64,000 nt of DNA from Lysinibacillus sphaericus (lineage in GTDB: Bacteria > Bacillota > Bacilli > Bacillales_A > Planococcaceae). Position numbers and translations under genes: made by a program. Positions 27,544 to 33,756 of the stretch are shown in pieces. Position 1 is the stretch's first letter. Every line of letters starts with the position of its first letter. The stretch is from assembly GCF_001629735.1 (NCBI RefSeq), contig NZ_CP015224.1:868001-932000 (forward strand), read 5' to 3'. The notes under the pieces were generated by a model that saw only the letters and a program-made list of their open reading frames with translations, was not told the origin of the DNA and searched no databases.

Positions 27544-28425
27544 ATGGAATTGCGTCAATTAAAGACCTTTTATACACTCGCTTCAACACTCAACTTTAGC
27601 CGCGCTGCAGAGGTGCAAAACTATGTTCCATCCACGGTTACGATGCAAATGAAGGCATTGGAAGAGGAACTAGGTGTAAAGCTGGTGGACAGATTAGGAA
27701 AAAAAGTAATCTTGACTGATGCGGGTAGACGTTTTCTAGATTATGTAGTCCGTATATTGAGTGAACTTGAAGAAGCGGAGCATGCGGTTAAGCAATCTGG
27801 CGAAATGACGGGGACGTTGGTCATTAGTGCAGATGAAACGTTGTGTACGTACCGCCTGCCTGCTATACTGCGTCTGTTTCGCTTACGATATCCAGGAATT
27901 CGGCTTATTTTTAAGCCGCTGTCACATGCGAACTTGAAACAAAGTTTGCGAGAAGGGGACGCGGACATTATTTTTATGCTAGATGAGGACAAGCACGAGA
28001 TTGGGTTTTGCGGAGAAAAAATGCAGGATGAGTCCTTTTATATTTTGGTAGCGCCTGATCATCCATTAGCTTCACGTACTGAATTGGACATTGAAGATTT
28101 TAATGGGGAGACCTTTTTACTGACGGAGAAAGGGTGTTCCTATCGCACATTTTTTGAGCGAAGTCTTTCTCAAAAGGGCATGGGGGGAATTACGGAATTG
28201 GAATTTAACAGTGCGGAGGCGATTAAACAATGTGCGAAAATAGGGATGGGCATCGCCATCTTGCCTGAAATGGCTGTGACAGCAGAATTGAGTAGGGGGG
28301 AACTAGTCTCGTTGCCGTGGGATATGTCGGCCACATCGTTTGCCACCCAAATGTTTTGGCATGAAGAAAAGTGGATTTCGCCTGCCATCCAAGCTTTTTT
28401 AAACTTGGCACGAGACTTTGCTTGA
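27544..28425 (+). CDS. LysR-family transcriptional regulator
   Basis: This 293-residue protein has an N-terminal winged HTH (MELRQLKTFYTLASTLNFSRAAE, then VTMQMKALEEELGVKL) and a periplasmic-binding-like co-inducer domain. GGGGTGA lies 8 bases before the chosen ATG. It is divergent from the MetX-like gene with a 139-base shared control region, the usual arrangement for a LysR regulator and its target. Confidence 0.9.
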   Translation: MELRQLKTFYTLASTLNFSRAAEVQNYVPSTVTMQMKALEEELGVKLVDRLGKKVILTDAGRRFLDYVVRILSELEEAEHAVKQSGEMTGTLVISADETLCTYRLPAILRLFRLRYPGIRLIFKPLSHANLKQSLREGDADIIFMLDEDKHEIGFCGEKMQDESFYILVAPDHPLASRTELDIEDFNGETFLLTEKGCSYRTFFERSLSQKGMGGITELEFNSAEAIKQCAKIGMGIAILPEMAVTAELSRGELVSLPWDMSATSFATQMFWHEEKWISPAIQAFLNLARDFA

Positions 28426-28491
28426 AGTTTAATCACAATAAACAATTTAACAATGACTCTCTCAATTTTCACAATCAATATTTTCTTTATC

Positions 28492-28720
28492 AATACATTA
28501 GGTTATAAAGATAATCCGTTTACAATGATTGTAGGTGTTCAATCAAATAGTAAATATAGACCTGTATCAAGTGTAGAGTTTGGATTTAAACCTGAAAACA
28601 GCATTTAGAGAAATAGCTAATCAAATAGTAACCACCGTGGAACGAGATGTAATGTGGCTAGAACCAAGATTATTCTGTAAGATAAACAAACACAAGGTCT
28701 TTAAGATTCGTTTCATTTAA
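28492..28720 (+). pseudogene. Remnant of the 3' end of an ATP-dependent DNA ligase gene
   Basis: Two frames joined by a shift near 28605 read GYKDNPFTMIVGVQS, then SSVEFGFKPEN, then AFREIANQIVTTVERDVMWLEPRLFCKI. The order (GYxxxxFxxxVG, EFGxxPE, LEPRLxC) is that of the C-terminal OB part of phage/LigD-type ATP-dependent DNA ligases. No start, nucleotidyltransferase domain or ribosome site is present. It marks the left part of the accessory island. Confidence 0.5.
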
Positions 28721-28782
28721 AGGGTTTAATTTAGAAGTTAATGAGCTTTAAAATACGAAATTAAGTAAAGGGTGGTATTTAT

Positions 28783-29172
28783 GTGTTAAGAAAAATAATT
28801 ATTATTTCATTTGCATTGATTTTTCTATGTGTGGGATGTTCTAATGATACAAAGAAAATTATTTTAGAGATGGCTGATGAAAATGGAGATTTTAAAGAAA
28901 GTTTAGAAATCCTAGATAAAGATCAAGTCTCAATAATAAATAAAATTCTTACTAAAGTTAAATGGAAAGAAAAAAGTAAAGAGTCATTTGGACTATTAAA
29001 GTTTAGAATGTCTTTTGATTTTATAGACCCTGATAAGGAGTTGAAGTCTTCTTATTATTTAATCTATGTCAATTCAAAAGAACAAGTAACTCTGGTAGAA
29101 AATGATATGAAATATACTAAATTATCAAAAGAAGAATCAAAAGAATTACTTGAAATACTAGCAAATAAATAA
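28783..29172 (+). CDS. Small lipoprotein, function unknown
   Basis: This 129-residue protein has a type II signal peptide (hydrophobic FALIFLCV, then the lipobox VGC with Cys near residue 19). The mature part is hydrophilic with a YYLIYVNSKEQVTLVENDMKY beta-rich stretch. AAAGGGTGG lies 6 bases before the GTG start. No family was recognised. It is AT-rich like the whole island and stands alone. Confidence 0.65.
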   Translation: MLRKIIIISFALIFLCVGCSNDTKKIILEMADENGDFKESLEILDKDQVSIINKILTKVKWKEKSKESFGLLKFRMSFDFIDPDKELKSSYYLIYVNSKEQVTLVENDMKYTKLSKEESKELLEILANK

Positions 29173-29810
29173 CTTAAAGGACAAAGATAGTGAAATTAAA
29201 AATCAATACATTTTTAATGAATGAAGAACAAATGCTTTAATGAAAGAATATTGATTTTTCAAAACTAAATGTTCACAACTATTGAGAGAGTCTTAAATGA
29301 CTCTCTTTTATGCAATAATATTTCCCATTAAATAAAACTAAAAGATAGATTATCTATTCAATAGCATGTTGTTCCTAAAGAGAGAAACTATAGCTTGATA
29401 AAGAAATGAAAGGAGAGCAGCAAAAGTTATCAAGACCTAAATTGAAAAAAAGTAGATAAAATAAAGAGCATAACATATTAGTCATATAAAATATGTTATG
29501 CTCTCGATTTTTAACTAAAATAACGGACCACTGTTTCACATTAAAGAATATTTTGTTGCTCTACTATCTGGTACCAATCAGTTTTAAGAAAGTCATTCAT
29601 CATATACTAACCCTCTACTAAACCCACTAAACTGTATTACTTGCTTATCATCCGCCTTTTTAATGTCGTTAGGTAGAAATTTATGAGCTTTAAACACTCT
29701 TATACCTTCTTCGACTTGGAGATATGATACTTTTCCGACATCCAAGAGACTTTGTATTAGTTTTTCAATGTATAATATAAATGCAGCCTTTTCATCATAT
29801 TGTAGATTTA
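29173..29810. other. Gene-poor AT-rich stretch with decayed coding remnants
   Basis: It contains a terminator-like hairpin at 29285-29310 and a larger one at 29466-29503 (GAGCATAACATAT / ATATGTTATGCTC, then TTTTT). On the minus strand from about 29840 to 29593 an open frame without a start reads FILYIEKLIQSLLDVGKVSY, then VFKAHKFLPNDIKKADDK, ending YDE and stop. This looks like the C-terminal remnant of a real protein I cannot name. A 20-residue frame starting MMNDFLKTDWYQ overlaps its stop. Confidence 0.4.
29285..29312 (+). terminator. Terminator-like hairpin downstream of the lipoprotein gene
   Basis: AGAGAGTC pairs with GACTCTCT, followed by TTTT. Confidence 0.65.
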
Positions 29811-29890
29811 AAATAAAGTTGTACCGTTTATAAAAAAGATGTATCGTTTAAAATAAAGTTCTACTGTTTTTAAAAAAGTTGCACCATTTT
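29811..29890. repeat. Four tandem 20-bp direct repeats
   Basis: Four units of exactly 20 bases follow each other, consensus (A/T)AAA(T/A)AAAGTTG(T/C)ACCGTTT. They overlap the beginning of the decayed minus-strand frame. The period is not a multiple of three. Such arrays are found as iterons or as transposase-binding sites at transposon ends; here the role is unknown. Confidence 0.75.
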
Positions 29891-29994
29891 GTCTCTTTTG
29901 ATGTAAGAATTCTAAGTGAGTTTTAATCAAACTTTTTTATAAAAAATAACTCCTTCACAAAATTAAATCCATCCATTGTGATTAATCTTTTTTC

Positions 29995-30147
29995 AAAATG
30001 GATGGGTTTCTTCTATTGTAAAATCAGCATTTGTAGCACGGTTTTAATTAAACTTTATTTTAAACCAGCACAAAATGGATTCTTCTTATTTACCGTAAAA
30101 TACGGGTTTGTAAGGTGTTTTTAATTAAACTTTATTTCAAAGTAACA
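29995..30147. repeat. Two degenerate 77-bp tandem repeats
   Basis: Units 29995-30071 and 30072-30147 both run AAAATGGAT, TTCTTCT/TTCTTAT, GTAAAAT, GTTTTAATTAAACTTTATTT. A partial copy of the GTTTTAATCAAACTTT core is at 29920-29935. The core AAACTTTATTTTAAA is the reverse complement of a word in the 20-bp array just upstream, so the two arrays face each other. Confidence 0.65.
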
Positions 30148-30169
30148 AAAAGCTTTTATAATCGCCAAC

Positions 30170-30213
30170 AAAAAAAACGAACTATCCACCGAAAAGCTCG
30201 GAATAGTTCGGTT
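30170..30213 (-). terminator. Terminator of the protease operon
   Basis: On the minus strand CGAACTATTCC pairs with GGATAGTTCG, followed by eight T residues. Confidence 0.85.
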
Positions 30214-30287
30214 TTTCTATTTATCGTGTTTTGGTAATTTAGAGATTATTCGGCTTTATGAAGGAACCAATTAGTTATGTCCCAGCC

Positions 30288-30848
30288 TCACTTCTTTTTC
30301 TTACATTCAAATTTATATCCACCTGCTTTAGTTGCAGCTCCACCATCAGTGGTTCCTTTAGCTCCTGCTTTGTCCTTTGAATCAATTTCTGGATAACCAC
30401 CGTTAGCGTAACACTTATCAATTAGGGTCATTTTTTCTTTATGAGAAAAGTAAAGGGCAGAAAAGATAATACCACCAGCAACAATAATTGCACCAACTAC
30501 TATTGGAACAAACCAAACAATATTTGCGTGACCTAATTCTGTGTCGATTTTTATATCGTCCAAATTGTACCCGTTCTGTATCAAGATTTCATCAATTTCT
30601 TCATCGCTTAAATTTTTCAGATAATTTTTAACGTAATTTAATTCTTGATTCTCTAAATATGGATTTAAACTTAAAGCCTCTTCTTCAAATAAAACTATTT
30701 CGTGAGTTTTCACTGAATAGTAAGTAGAATTATTTATTGCATCATCTTTTGCTGCTACTTCATTTGCTTTAGAGATAGGAGAAGCGATTGCGCTAAATAA
30801 TAGTGTCAATATTAGCAATGGTACTAGTTTAAACATTTTTTTGATCAT
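30288..30848 (-). CDS. Exported membrane-anchored protein with C-terminal two-Cys motif
   Basis: This 186-residue protein has a signal peptide (about residues 1-28, cut near ISKANE), a helical acidic domain (LSDEEIDEILIQNGYNL), then one TM segment (about 109-132). A C-terminal tail reads CYANGGYPEI, then a Gly/Ala/Lys-rich linker, then YKFEC and four Lys. A motif of Cys, Asn-Gly, Tyr/Glu and a closing F-x-C is also present in the divergent 76-residue protein at 31782. It is the second gene after the subtilisin lipoprotein, 13 bases downstream, so it is a candidate substrate or partner. No family was recognised. Confidence 0.65.
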   Translation of the reverse strand: MIKKMFKLVPLLILTLLFSAIASPISKANEVAAKDDAINNSTYYSVKTHEIVLFEEEALSLNPYLENQELNYVKNYLKNLSDEEIDEILIQNGYNLDDIKIDTELGHANIVWFVPIVVGAIIVAGGIIFSALYFSHKEKMTLIDKCYANGGYPEIDSKDKAGAKGTTDGGAATKAGGYKFECKKKK

Positions 30849-30861
30849 AATAACATTCCTC

Positions 30862-31710
30862 TCATTTGTTTGTATTTTTGTTAAATATTAGTATATTTAT
30901 TACTCTACCATTAAAATTAAAAAATTCAACATTATCTTGTAAATAGATTTCTTTTTTGTCTATATTTTTATTTAAATAGATTGATAAAACACCCGTGAAG
31001 TTTGCCGAAGCTATTGATGAACCTTCGGTTCTTATATAATTTCCTTTGTTATTTTTAGCTATAACATCGACTCCTGGAGCAAAGAAATCTATTTTCCCTG
31101 TAGAAGAAAATCCAAATAACTCCTTATTTTTATCTATAGCAGCTACTGATATTACATTTTTATATTCGGCTGGATAATCGGATATATCACTCATAGTATC
31201 TCCACTAGAGGCTACTAGAATAATATTTTTTTTGTGGGCTTTATCTATACATTCTTTTAGCTGTTTGTTGTTTGTATTAAAACCTAGGCTCATATTGATC
31301 ACGTCAGCTTCATATTCTATTGCTTTAGATATTCCGTCACAAACGTTATTTATTGTGGTTTGTCCTTTATTATTAATTACCTGGATATCAAATAACTCTA
31401 CATTAGTATTAATACCTATTTTTTCATCAATAATAATACTAGCAATTTTTGTTCCATGATCGAATTCGTCATTAGTTTTATTTTCGTTTGTAATAACGTT
31501 ATAGCTTTTTGTGATAAGATTCTTTGCGAAATGTCTCTTATTTATACCACTATCAAGTATTGCTATTTTTATTTTTTTATCACCGTCTTCTTTAGAGTAA
31601 TTTCCAACATTCTGAATCTTTAAATTCCAGCTATCCTTGTTTTCATTGTTAGTACAAGCGTTTAAGAAAAATAAACTAATAAAACACATGAGAATTAACC
31701 TCGATTTCAT
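30862..31710 (-). CDS. Membrane-anchored subtilisin-family (S8) protease lipoprotein
   Basis: This 282-residue protein has a lipoprotein signal with lipobox LNAC (Cys near 19), and almost the whole mature part is one S8 catalytic domain. The triad is Asp in IAILDSGINKRH (about residue 53), His in DHGTKIASI (about 85) and Ser in EGSSIASANF (about 230); the oxyanion region VASSGD is present. No propeptide is visible, and at about 260 mature residues it is a minimal subtilase. It should act on the outer face of the membrane on nearby substrates. AAGGAAGGGA precedes the ATG. It forms an operon with the two-Cys membrane protein. Confidence 0.85.
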   Translation of the reverse strand: MKSRLILMCFISLFFLNACTNNENKDSWNLKIQNVGNYSKEDGDKKIKIAILDSGINKRHFAKNLITKSYNVITNENKTNDEFDHGTKIASIIIDEKIGINTNVELFDIQVINNKGQTTINNVCDGISKAIEYEADVINMSLGFNTNNKQLKECIDKAHKKNIILVASSGDTMSDISDYPAEYKNVISVAAIDKNKELFGFSSTGKIDFFAPGVDVIAKNNKGNYIRTEGSSIASANFTGVLSIYLNKNIDKKEIYLQDNVEFFNFNGRVINILIFNKNTNK

Positions 31711-31781
31711 AGAAATCCCTTCCTTTATTACAATATTTTGGGTAAAATCTAATTAATTATAGCTTAAAGGGGGAGATTTAT

Positions 31782-32012
31782 GTGAAGAATGTTAATGGGG
31801 ATTATAATTATATTCAAATTGCCATAATAATTGTTTTTACTTTGTTATTGGTATTTGCAATATTAATTGCTGTAAAAAGTTATTTTAATAACAAAGAAAT
31901 AGGCTTGCTTTCTTCAGGATGTTTGAAAAATGATGGAGAGTACGAATTAGTAATTACTAATAAGTTAACTCAGAGTTATGAGTTTTCTTGTAATGAGAAA
32001 GAGGAACAGTAA
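31782..32012 (+). CDS. Small membrane protein with extracytoplasmic two-Cys tail
   Basis: This 76-residue protein has a short cytoplasmic N terminus, one TM (about residues 11-34), then YFNNKEIGLLSSGCLKNDGE and a closing YEFSCNEKEEQ. The tail parallels that of the 186-residue protein (KE, C, N, G, E, then Y-x-F-x-C), so both could form a small disulfide loop outside the cell. AAAGGGGGAG lies 6 bases before a GTG start. It is divergent from the S8 protease, sharing a 71-base promoter region. Confidence 0.65.
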   Translation: MKNVNGDYNYIQIAIIIVFTLLLVFAILIAVKSYFNNKEIGLLSSGCLKNDGEYELVITNKLTQSYEFSCNEKEEQ

Positions 32013-32391
32013 AGATTCAATGAGTAGCGCTAACCATTCTTTTTCGTTTTTTGTCGGAGTTGTGTGAGGGGGAAATACAGGGGAAGTGACAACTATAAAT
32101 GGCAAATAATTTATTGGTGAAGCAGATCATAAGAACCTTTCATAAAGGGTGAGAGCAAGATTTGTTAAATTATACATGTTGCATTAATTTACGTGAATGA
32201 TGTGCCTGTGATGTACTATGAGAAATCCCTATGTCCTAACCGTCCGTAGAAAAAGGGCAAAATCTACTCAATTGAAGATTAGCCCTTTGTTTTATTTAAA
32301 TTTTTAGCGACCAAATAAGAAAATAGGTCATCTTTGTTTATACCTTGTTTAATTGAATATTCGGAGGATTTGCTTCATCCAGTTACTCCTT
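32013..32391. other. Intergenic region with a bidirectional terminator
   Basis: There is no gene. A hairpin AAAGGGC-AAATCT / AGATT-GCCCTTT at 32251-32298 has T runs on both strands. Confidence 0.5.
32251..32298. terminator. Bidirectional terminator
   Basis: AAAGGGC and GCCCTTT arms with inner AATCT/AGATT pairing; TTTT on one side and TTTTT on the other. Confidence 0.75.
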
Positions 32392-33514
32392 TCAGTCTTT
32401 TTTCTTTAGGTTAAATTCGGATTGTGCTTTATTCCAATCTTCCCGAATATCTTCATCCGAAGGATGTAGGTATAGGTTCATTGTCATTTGAATTTGAGAG
32501 TGACCTGATCGTTCTTGCACTTGTTTAATGTCCTTTGTTTTCTGATAATAGATGGTAGCGTGTGTATGGCGAAATAGGTGAGGGTGTAGGTTTATCCCTG
32601 TCTTCTTTTTTAAACGCTTAAATAAGGATTCTACGTTCCAATATTCCATCGGTTTCCCCACGTCTTTTCCTCTCAATTTTACAAAAACAAAGTTTGTGTC
32701 CAAATCTAATTCATCCAGCACTTCATACAAATAATCGTCATATAAATCCATTAAGCACTGGGATACATAAATTTCTCGCTCACCAGTCTTTAACATCGCA
32801 CCGTTTTCTGATTCTCCACGATCCACTAAACGAATTCGATGTCCCTTGCCATGATCAAAAATGAAATCCTCTATGAAAAGAGCGAGAGCTCCCCCCAATA
32901 CGCAATCCTGTTTCAAATAACAATTGAATTAAGAATCTATCTCGAATATTAGTAGTTGCTTCTAATACTTGCTGCACTTGTTCTTTTGTGAGTGTATCTA
33001 CTTTTTTTCGTGGTTCTTTTAATTTCAGTATGTTTCTGATAGAGGGCTTGTCCTTATTTATATGGTGTAAAAAACTCTTGTAATGTGAGTGTCCCCCTGT
33101 AAACACTTGCTTCATCAGCTTTTCCATTATGTCATTTTGCACTTCTTCATTACGGTAAAGGTAATCATAAAAGTTTACTATTACTGTAATTGTAAGGTTA
33201 ATTGTCTTTTCCGTTCGTTTTGCTTTCTCTTGTTGAAGGGGAATAACGTTTAAACTCTGATAAGGGCTTCTTAACCATCCCACAAAATCAACTAAATCTT
33301 CTAATCTAATGAACTTATAATCCTTATCTTTTTCCACTAAGTAGTCATAAAAATGCTTTAAGGAGTAACAATATGTCTTTTGAGTATTAGGGCTTTTTCC
33401 TGTCTTATCTAAATACTTTATATATTTCATCACTGGCATTACAGGAAACCCCTCTTGATCCAATAATATGTATCTCCTCTTGTTATTTTCAATGAGAACT
33501 TCTTGTACCCTCAT
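32392..33514 (-). pseudogene. tnpA: Tyrosine recombinase (Tn554 TnpA-like), frameshifted
   Basis: Two overlapping frames together encode a complete tyrosine recombinase of about 373 residues, close to the length of Tn554 TnpA-like proteins. The first part has a SAM-like core-binding domain and ends in LLFETGLRIG with the catalytic Arg. The second carries RHTHAT (HxxR box), SGHSQIQMTMNLYLH with His and the Tyr nucleophile. The frames meet at a run of six G on the coding strand (32891-32896); five G would restore the frame. The start has GGAGAG about 8 bases upstream. TnpB and TnpC companions of Tn554 are absent. A slippage mechanism or sequencing error cannot be excluded. Confidence 0.75.
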
Positions 33515-33600
33515 AGCACATCTCTCCGAAAAGATATTAACGCTCGGTCTAAAGACCTCACTACGCCTCCCGCTGTGGGCTACATCCTCCACCAAAAAAA

Positions 33601-33612
33601 GAACGTATGTTC
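33601..33612. promoter_or_regulatory. LexA (SOS) box upstream of the recombinase
   Basis: GAACGTATGTTC matches the Gram-positive LexA core GAAC-RNRY-GTTC fully; flanks A and T replace the usual C and G. It lies 87 bases before the recombinase start. Confidence 0.55.
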
Positions 33613-33678
33613 TTTAATATTTTATACATACTATACGATATTTTCAATATCTAATTAACAAATCTAATATATAAAAGA

Positions 33679-33720
33679 AAAGAGGATATATGCTCATATA
33701 TTGAACATAATATCCTCTTA
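33679..33720 (-). terminator. Terminator of the amino-acid ABC transporter operon
   Basis: AAGAGGATAT pairs with ATATCCTCTT; T-rich downstream on the minus strand. Confidence 0.8.
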
Positions 33721-33756
33721 TTAGTTTAGTCTATTTAACTATGTCCGCCCTCCTTT

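What the first reader, a model, noticed from the sequence alone, without database searches (positions are those of the whole stretch)
30288..32012. Lipoprotein subtilisin with two membrane proteins carrying a shared two-Cys tail: possible undescribed surface proteolysis system
A minimal S8 protease with intact triad is lipid-anchored outside the membrane. Its operon partner and its divergent neighbour are both single-TM proteins whose outside tails share the pattern KE..C..N.G..E....Y.F.C. A protease tethered next to small disulfide-loop membrane proteins suggests processing, signalling, immunity or bacteriocin-like function. I know of no described system with this set.
Basis: partly seen in the sequence, partly recalled or inferred. 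Interest (0 to 1): 0.72.

Follow-up and report, generated by a model that had tools for sequence, protein, structure and literature searches.

The report
Bacteriocin-like precursor with tethered protease, look-alike guard
A bacterial chromosome carries a three-gene insert: a precursor with a predicted secretion signal that ends in a membrane helix and a two-cysteine tail, a subtilisin-type protease predicted to be tethered outside the cell that likely trims it into an antibacterial peptide, and a small membrane protein related to that same tail that would likely protect the producer; no such set turned up in the papers and family libraries searched.

Summary
In detail: S8 lipoprotein (30862-31710, -), 186-aa protein (30288-30848, -) and divergent 76-aa protein (31782-32012, +) are real, and the shared Cys tail is homology, not chance (profile probability 97.9% without the TM; 0 of 100 shuffles reach the score; reciprocal hits). 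All 7 S8-bearing loci found, in four Bacillales genera and partly on plasmids, carry the trio. In the window it sits in a 5.3-kb insertion absent from a sister genome. The 186-aa protein reads as signal peptide, pro-domain and C-terminal module (helix plus two-Cys tail). [A/G]HAN lies just before the helix in 7 of 7 S8-bearing and 0 of 20 S8-less homologues. A related pro-domain carries a different two-Cys peptide in staphylococci. Best reading: a bacteriocin precursor, its tethered maturation protease, and an immunity/decoy protein sharing the toxin's own module. It resembles TMcin bacteriocins in architecture, without their gene cluster and without detectable similarity to TMcin-like candidates.

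The parts
30288..30848 (-). precursor gene, 186 aa: signal peptide + pro-domain + TM/two-Cys module
   Evidence: no Pfam or NCBIfam family over its cut-off
30762..30848 (-). predicted signal peptide, residues 1-29 (boundary by eye)
   Evidence: sequence; least conserved segment, mean identity 0.42 among 7 trio copies
30525..30761 (-). pro-domain, residues 30-108; ends in GHA before N109, the proposed cleavage point
   Evidence: AlphaFold pLDDT block means 76-85 for residues 31-90; H107, A108, N109 invariant in A1; [A/G]HAN in 7/7 S8-bearing vs 0/20 S8-less loci
30288..30524 (-). C-terminal module, residues 109-186: TM helix (about 110-132) and tail with Cys146 and Cys182
   Evidence: most conserved segments (TM 0.63, tail 0.72); homologous to the 76-aa protein
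30862..31710 (-). S8 (subtilisin) lipoprotein, 282 aa; C19 lipobox, D53, H85, oxyanion D171, S232
31782..32012 (+). 76-aa membrane protein (GTG start), TM helix plus hairpin with Cys47 and Cys70; proposed immunity/decoy
   Evidence: AlphaFold mean pLDDT 85.5: helix 5-49, strands 52-60 and 65-72; family in 21 of 32 genus genomes
30178..30210 (-). terminator-like hairpin after the precursor gene
   Evidence: z-score -4.05
28417..33739 (.). 5.3-kb insertion that holds the trio; absent in sister genome G004
   Evidence: flanking bases 28416 and 33740 are 35 bp apart there
32392..33595 (-). tyrosine recombinase in two overlapping frames (32392-32916 and 32855-33595), apparently broken

Best explanation
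This is a likely bacteriocin locus: a 186-residue precursor with a predicted signal peptide would be cut just before its membrane helix, at a conserved [A/G]HA-N site, by the subtilisin encoded beside it, which is predicted to be tethered to the outer face of the membrane, releasing a 78-residue helix-plus-two-cysteine peptide predicted to attack the membranes of competitors, while the 76-residue membrane protein, which is homologous to that same peptide module, likely protects the producer. Shown: gene order, homology of the two Cys modules, conservation of the trio, motif-protease co-occurrence, mobile setting. Inferred: export route, cleavage point, disulfide, killing, and protection (probably by the 76-aa protein pairing with the peptide and blocking its assembly). 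How the tail leaves the cell is not settled.
For: Trio conserved in 7 of 7 S8-bearing loci: this Lysinibacillus, Viridibacillus, a Peribacillus chromosomal contig and a 216-kb Peribacillus plasmid, two Bacillus isolates, and B. altitudinis plasmids of 8.4 and 8.6 kb counted once. Protease has a predicted tether in 7 of 7: lipobox in 4, an N-terminal hydrophobic stretch (by eye) in 3. [A/G]HAN before the helix in 7/7 S8-bearing and 0/20 S8-less distinct loci. The C-terminal module is the best conserved part. Modular precursor: L065, L079, L080 and L082 have a related pro-domain with a different two-Cys peptide and a small membrane ORF beside it; nine further database proteins, five named Staphylococcus, end in the same kind of peptide. 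Small membrane ORF within 450 bp of the precursor in 17 of 27 loci vs 14 of 90 control anchors (Fisher p 4e-6). In L064 the membrane protein beside the precursor ends in a tm-like module (E 5.9e-6 in a set of five sequences). Mobile setting: small plasmids, recombinases, empty site. TM helix plus Cys-pinned two-strand loop is the known architecture of TMcin bacteriocins (PMC12328743).
Against: No activity data. No transporter or DsbA-type gene in the trio. A cleaved signal peptide followed by one strongly hydrophobic helix (mean hydropathy 2.67) with charges -3 before and +1 after predicts the tail inside the producer, where a disulfide would not be expected. Both Cys are lost in the Peribacillus-type and Corynebacterium tm partners. 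The HAN/S8 link may reflect one clade rather than function, and for 11 of the 20 S8-less loci only about 1.5 kb of flank was read. In 19 of the 21 genus genomes with a tm match, the match does not lie beside a precursor, so tm need not be an immunity protein. Within Peribacillus-type copies omega of tm is 0.77, 1.74 and 0.18.
Confidence: 0.5

Rival explanations
1. Surface signalling by shedding: the S8 lipoprotein cuts the precursor outside the membrane and either the freed pro-domain is the signal or the remaining helix with an inside tail reports to the cell; the 76-aa protein is a binding partner.
For: Topology rules place the precursor tail inside and the tm tail outside; tm proteins are widespread without the trio.
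Against: The pro-domain is less conserved than the C-terminal module (0.50 vs 0.63-0.72) and goes with different C-terminal peptides elsewhere; no shared regulator gene was seen beside the trio in the loci read; small-plasmid spread.
Confidence: 0.2
2. Membrane toxin-antitoxin or plasmid-keeping module: the precursor module harms its own host unless the tm homologue is present, stabilising plasmids and islands.
For: Small plasmids and a mobile insertion; a toxin-like and a neutralising-like gene pair sharing one module.
Against: Signal peptide and dedicated outside protease point to export; the protease is not needed for an internal toxin.
Confidence: 0.12
3. Surface exclusion of phage or plasmids by membrane proteins matured by the protease.
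For: Mobile setting; the S8 domain matches PADLOC subtilase and IetS models (E 3.6e-12 and 1.6e-5) and a phage protease family (phrog_3677, E 2e-57).
Against: These hits are to the S8 catalytic domain; precursor has only a weak PADLOC match (E 0.003) and tm none; no precursor relative in viral contigs or phage records.
Confidence: 0.08

Closest known systems
TMcin bacteriocins (TmcA of S. aureus G1905; PMC12328743, PMC13252029)
   Same: Product is one TM helix followed by a loop with two conserved Cys; leader removed by a locus-encoded protease at the membrane; plasmid-borne in one case, and found in Bacillota and Actinomycetota.
   Different: TmcA is encoded by 297 bp with a 45-residue leader, cut by an S2P-type metalloprotease, oxidised by a DsbA homologue and exported by TmcBC; here a predicted Sec-type signal plus a 79-residue pro-domain, an S8 protease, a homologous tm partner, no transporter. 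No profile similarity to eight TMcin-like candidates chosen by architecture near PF11667 genes; TmcA itself was not compared.
Closticin 574 (described in PMC10888436, passages read)
   Same: Preproprotein with a probable general signal peptide and the antimicrobial peptide (82 aa) at the C-terminus, thought to be processed outside by a proteinase.
   Different: No protease is assigned to it in the passages read; sequence relationship not tested.
SDP cannibalism toxin of Bacillus (recalled; only a listing seen)
   Same: Signal-peptide precursor, hydrophobic C-terminal toxin with a disulfide, membrane immunity protein (recalled).
   Different: No SdpA, SdpB or SdpI family among the eight window genes scanned; precursor has no Pfam or NCBIfam match over cut-off.
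Lantibiotic leader peptidases of the S8 family, such as NisP (recalled)
   Same: Extracellular tethered subtilisin that trims a bacteriocin precursor (recalled).
   Different: No lanthionine enzyme or dedicated ABC transporter seen in the insertion; the substrate would be a Sec-type precursor.

Membership tests
S8 subtilase family | Asp/His/Ser triad in the subtilisin family by sequence | tested here: met
   Pfam PF00082 E=1.4e-32; D53, H85, S232 align with solved subtilisins
S8 subtilase family | oxyanion-hole Asn | tested here: not met
   Asp171 here; Asp in 5 of 7 trio copies, Asn in 2 of 7. Asp at this site is known in active PC2 (recalled), so activity is not excluded
TMcin | mature part is a TM helix followed by a C-terminal segment with two conserved Cys | tested here: met
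   both Cys invariant in A1 and A3; hydrophobic segment 110-128
TMcin | two-strand loop pinned to the helix end by a disulfide | tested here: inconclusive
   tm76 model fits, mean pLDDT 85.5; the precursor's own tail is modelled poorly, block pLDDT 34-65; disulfide not testable here
TMcin | two conserved Trp flanking the helix | tested here: not met
   one invariant Trp (W112) at the start of the helix, none at its end
TMcin | sequence homology to TmcA | tested here: inconclusive
   no similarity to 8 TMcin-like candidates (hhalign probability 0.5-5; 5 and 11 of 100 shuffles reach the score), which were chosen by architecture alone; TmcA itself was not compared
TMcin | tmcP (PF11667) metalloprotease and tmcBC ABC transporter in the cluster | tested here: not met
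   own genome has two PF11667 matches, both outside the window; no such genes in the insertion or annotated beside S8 on the plasmids
Closticin-574-like | Sec preproprotein with C-terminal peptide processed outside | tested here: inconclusive
   predicted anatomy fits; processing and homology not tested
SDP toxin system | sdpAB and sdpI partners | tested here: not met
   none among the eight window genes scanned against Pfam; other trio loci were not scanned for them
Bacteriocin (general) | kills relatives; producer immune | not testable with these tools
   -

The most novel reading that the evidence does not exclude
A second, independently evolved class of helix-plus-disulfide-loop membrane bacteriocins, matured by a tethered subtilisin, in which immunity comes from a membrane-anchored copy of the toxin's own pore module, and whose orphan copies, common on Lysinibacillus chromosomes, act as standing resistance genes.
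Probability: 0.3. Interest if true: 0.8.

Novelty: new variant of a known kind. Interest (0 to 1): 0.6.

Why it matters
If right, it adds an antimicrobial peptide family that Pfam and NCBIfam do not name, shows a second route to the TMcin-type architecture, and offers a clear case of immunity built from the weapon's own module. Relatives occur in Bacillota and in one Corynebacterium assembly, and the protease-motif link makes cleavage directly testable with one Ser-to-Ala mutant.

Tried and rejected

Rows dropped: the truncated duplicates L085 and L086 (copies of L043 and L044) are not counted, and L050, which the script flagged HAN, is counted as lacking it because its AHAN lies in the signal peptide. 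Precursor homologues with internal stops or truncation (G030, G002) were left out of alignments and counts and were not mended. For 11 of the 20 S8-less rows only about 1.5 kb of flank was read. Most rows of alignment A1 come from proteins without genomic context, so the HAN/S8 count rests on the 27 loci alone. In one search the hit at L042 is not the tm gene, and the tm gene of L048 failed the filter.

Full report
What is there. The window lies in a chromosome of 4.69 Mb; the genus is taken as Lysinibacillus because a 95%-identical copy of the 76-aa protein is named so (P0016). Three genes were confirmed: an S8 lipoprotein at 30862-31710 (-), a 186-aa protein 13 bp downstream at 30288-30848 (-), and a divergent 76-aa protein at 31782-32012 (+) with a GTG start. 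A terminator-like hairpin follows the 186-aa gene (30178-30210). Against the Viridibacillus copies omega is 0.19 (S8), 0.31 (precursor) and 0.26 (tm); among the three Peribacillus-type copies it is 0.15, 0.17 and 0.33 for S8, 0.48, 0.54 and 0.06 for the precursor, and 0.77, 1.74 and 0.18 for the short tm gene.

The protease. It is a short subtilase (PF00082, E=1.4e-32) with little room for the usual propeptide between the lipobox (C19) and the catalytic domain (from about residue 45). D53, H85 and S232 align with the catalytic residues of solved subtilisins; the oxyanion Asn is Asp171. Across the seven trio copies that residue is Asp in five and Asn in two. Four copies have a lipobox; the three Peribacillus-type copies have an N-terminal hydrophobic stretch instead, so a predicted tether is kept while its form changes. 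The S8 domain also matches a phage protease family strongly (phrog_3677).

The precursor. No Pfam or NCBIfam family covers it over cut-off. A protein search gave 13 proteins among 171 candidates. Alignment shows a variable signal region, a pro-domain, an invariant HAN directly before W..P and the helix, then two invariant Cys in a tail ending GYKF(E/D)C. Among the seven trio copies mean identity rises from signal 0.42 through pro-domain 0.50 and helix 0.63 to tail 0.72. The precursor looks modular: L065, L079, L080 and L082 share the N-terminal part but end in a different two-Cys peptide, and nine further database proteins, five of them named Staphylococcus, end in the same kind of peptide. 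L065, L079, L080 and L082 each have a small membrane ORF beside them.

The tail is shared by descent. Profile comparison of the post-helix parts alone gives probability 97.9 and score 56.6, against a best of 18.8 in 100 column shuffles; the helix alone gives 54 and the pro-domain 0.3. The precursor profile picks up tm-family proteins in other genomes, and the tm profile picks up the precursor module in 5 of 5 genomes tested (E 4e-9 to 7e-8). The 76-aa model is confident: helix 5-49, strands 52-60 and 65-72, so that Cys47 lies at the helix end and Cys70 in the second strand.

Distribution. Named relatives: 5 loci in genome contigs, 4 of 72,556 plasmid records, none in viral contigs or 50,697 phage records. 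Whole-genome searches with the precursor found 11 of 61 relatives, all in the genus. With the profile, 35 of 261 genomes of the order matched, but 16 of these are matches to the helix-and-first-Cys stretch only, that is tm-type proteins, and one to the pro-domain only. In the class sample 12 of 398 matched, again mostly partial. In the staphylococcal-type family 3 of 108 matched, pro-domain only; in the Peribacillus-type family 3 of 43, of which two are loci already known and one is tm-type. The S8-bearing form is in 7 distinct loci; all 7 have the tm protein and [A/G]HAN before the helix. Of 20 S8-less loci none has HAN there. Two of the 20 have a separate tm partner (L013; L046 Corynebacterium); L064 has a tm-like module fused to the neighbouring membrane protein (E 5.9e-6 in a set of five); 13 have another small membrane ORF within 450 bp, eight of them a helix with a charged, coiled-coil-like tail. 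In the uniform test 17 of 27 precursor loci have a small membrane ORF within 450 bp, against 14 of 90 control anchors (Fisher p 4e-6). Of the seven S8 loci only L045 passes with its tm gene; L042 passes with another ORF, S8 stands between in five, and L048's tm gene failed the filter. In the genus, tm matches occur in 21 of 32 genomes and lie beside a precursor in 2 of these 21 (this genome and G016); in four others they are 16-21 kb away on the same contig.

Mobility. In sister genome G004 the bases matching 28416 and 33740 lie 35 bp apart, so the window carries a 5.3-kb insertion; G009 has other genes at the same place. A recombinase split over two frames lies inside it. The B. altitudinis copies are on 8.4- and 8.6-kb plasmids and a diverged, S8-less Lysinibacillus copy on an 8.2-kb plasmid.

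How it most likely works. The anatomy fits a bacteriocin precursor: export signal, pro-domain, a membrane-active C-terminal peptide, a protease placed on the outer face, and a small membrane protein for protection. The best comparison is TMcin, whose product is a TM helix with a disulfide-pinned two-strand loop that forms large pores (PMC12328743: outline, abstract, introduction, first results section, sections 7, 9 and 10, and passages seen), made inside the membrane with a metalloprotease, a DsbA homologue and an ABC exporter, the disulfide being needed for killing (PMC13252029: outline and parts 1-2 of 5 seen). Eight TMcin-like candidates from loci near PF11667 genes show no profile similarity to either module here, so the likeness is one of architecture. 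Closticin 574 gives the precedent for a signal-peptide preproprotein cut outside to an 82-aa C-terminal peptide (PMC10888436, passages seen).

What does not fit. A cleaved signal peptide plus one hydrophobic helix flanked -3/+1 predicts the tail inside; in the family the N-side is negative in 22 of 25 rows and the C-side positive in 18 of 25. The tm family has a positive N-terminus in 20 of 22 rows (0 in the window copy) and is predicted tail-out. Homologous modules would then lie in opposite directions, unless the precursor's helix is carried across whole. Two groups of tm partners have lost both Cys. The motif-protease link could be shared ancestry. The many orphan tm proteins show that the family has other roles or settings.

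Noticed in passing
window 28783-29172 (+): 129-aa predicted lipoprotein without a family match, inside the same insertion; the stretch before its start resembles that before the 76-aa gene (repeat D8, 20 nt, 85%).
   Followed up: no
window 32392-33595 (-): Tyrosine recombinase split into two overlapping frames; a recombinase also lies beside the precursor on P. frigoritolerans plasmid L047 and, by likeness, in L044.
   Followed up: partly
window 30862-31710 (-): The S8 domain matches a 1125-residue phage protease profile (phrog_3677, E 2e-57) more strongly than Pfam's S8 model.
   Followed up: no
window 29458-29511 and 29807-30147: Strong hairpin (22-nt arms, z=-6.7) and short tandem/direct repeats between the lipoprotein and the precursor gene; a 51-bp piece (80%) recurs at the same site in G009.
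   Followed up: partly
L048 2513-3172 (+), B. altitudinis plasmid pPOD2000: Second possible precursor: 219 aa, signal-like start, hydrophobic C-terminus with two Cys, upstream of the S8 gene; no family match over cut-off.
   Followed up: partly
L065, L079, L080, L082; P0018, P0019, P0021-P0027: Precursor-like proteins with a different C-terminal two-Cys peptide, five named Staphylococcus: possibly a further undescribed bacteriocin family.
   Followed up: partly
L064 2039-2857 (-): 272-aa membrane protein beside a precursor ends in a TM/two-Cys module like the 76-aa protein.
   Followed up: yes
L055, L058, L059, L060: Precursors beside a conserved 160-aa membrane protein and an XRE-type regulator, a different partner set.
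   Followed up: partly
P0020: 95-aa protein with the same helix but altered ends, apparently a broken precursor copy in a close relative.
   Followed up: no
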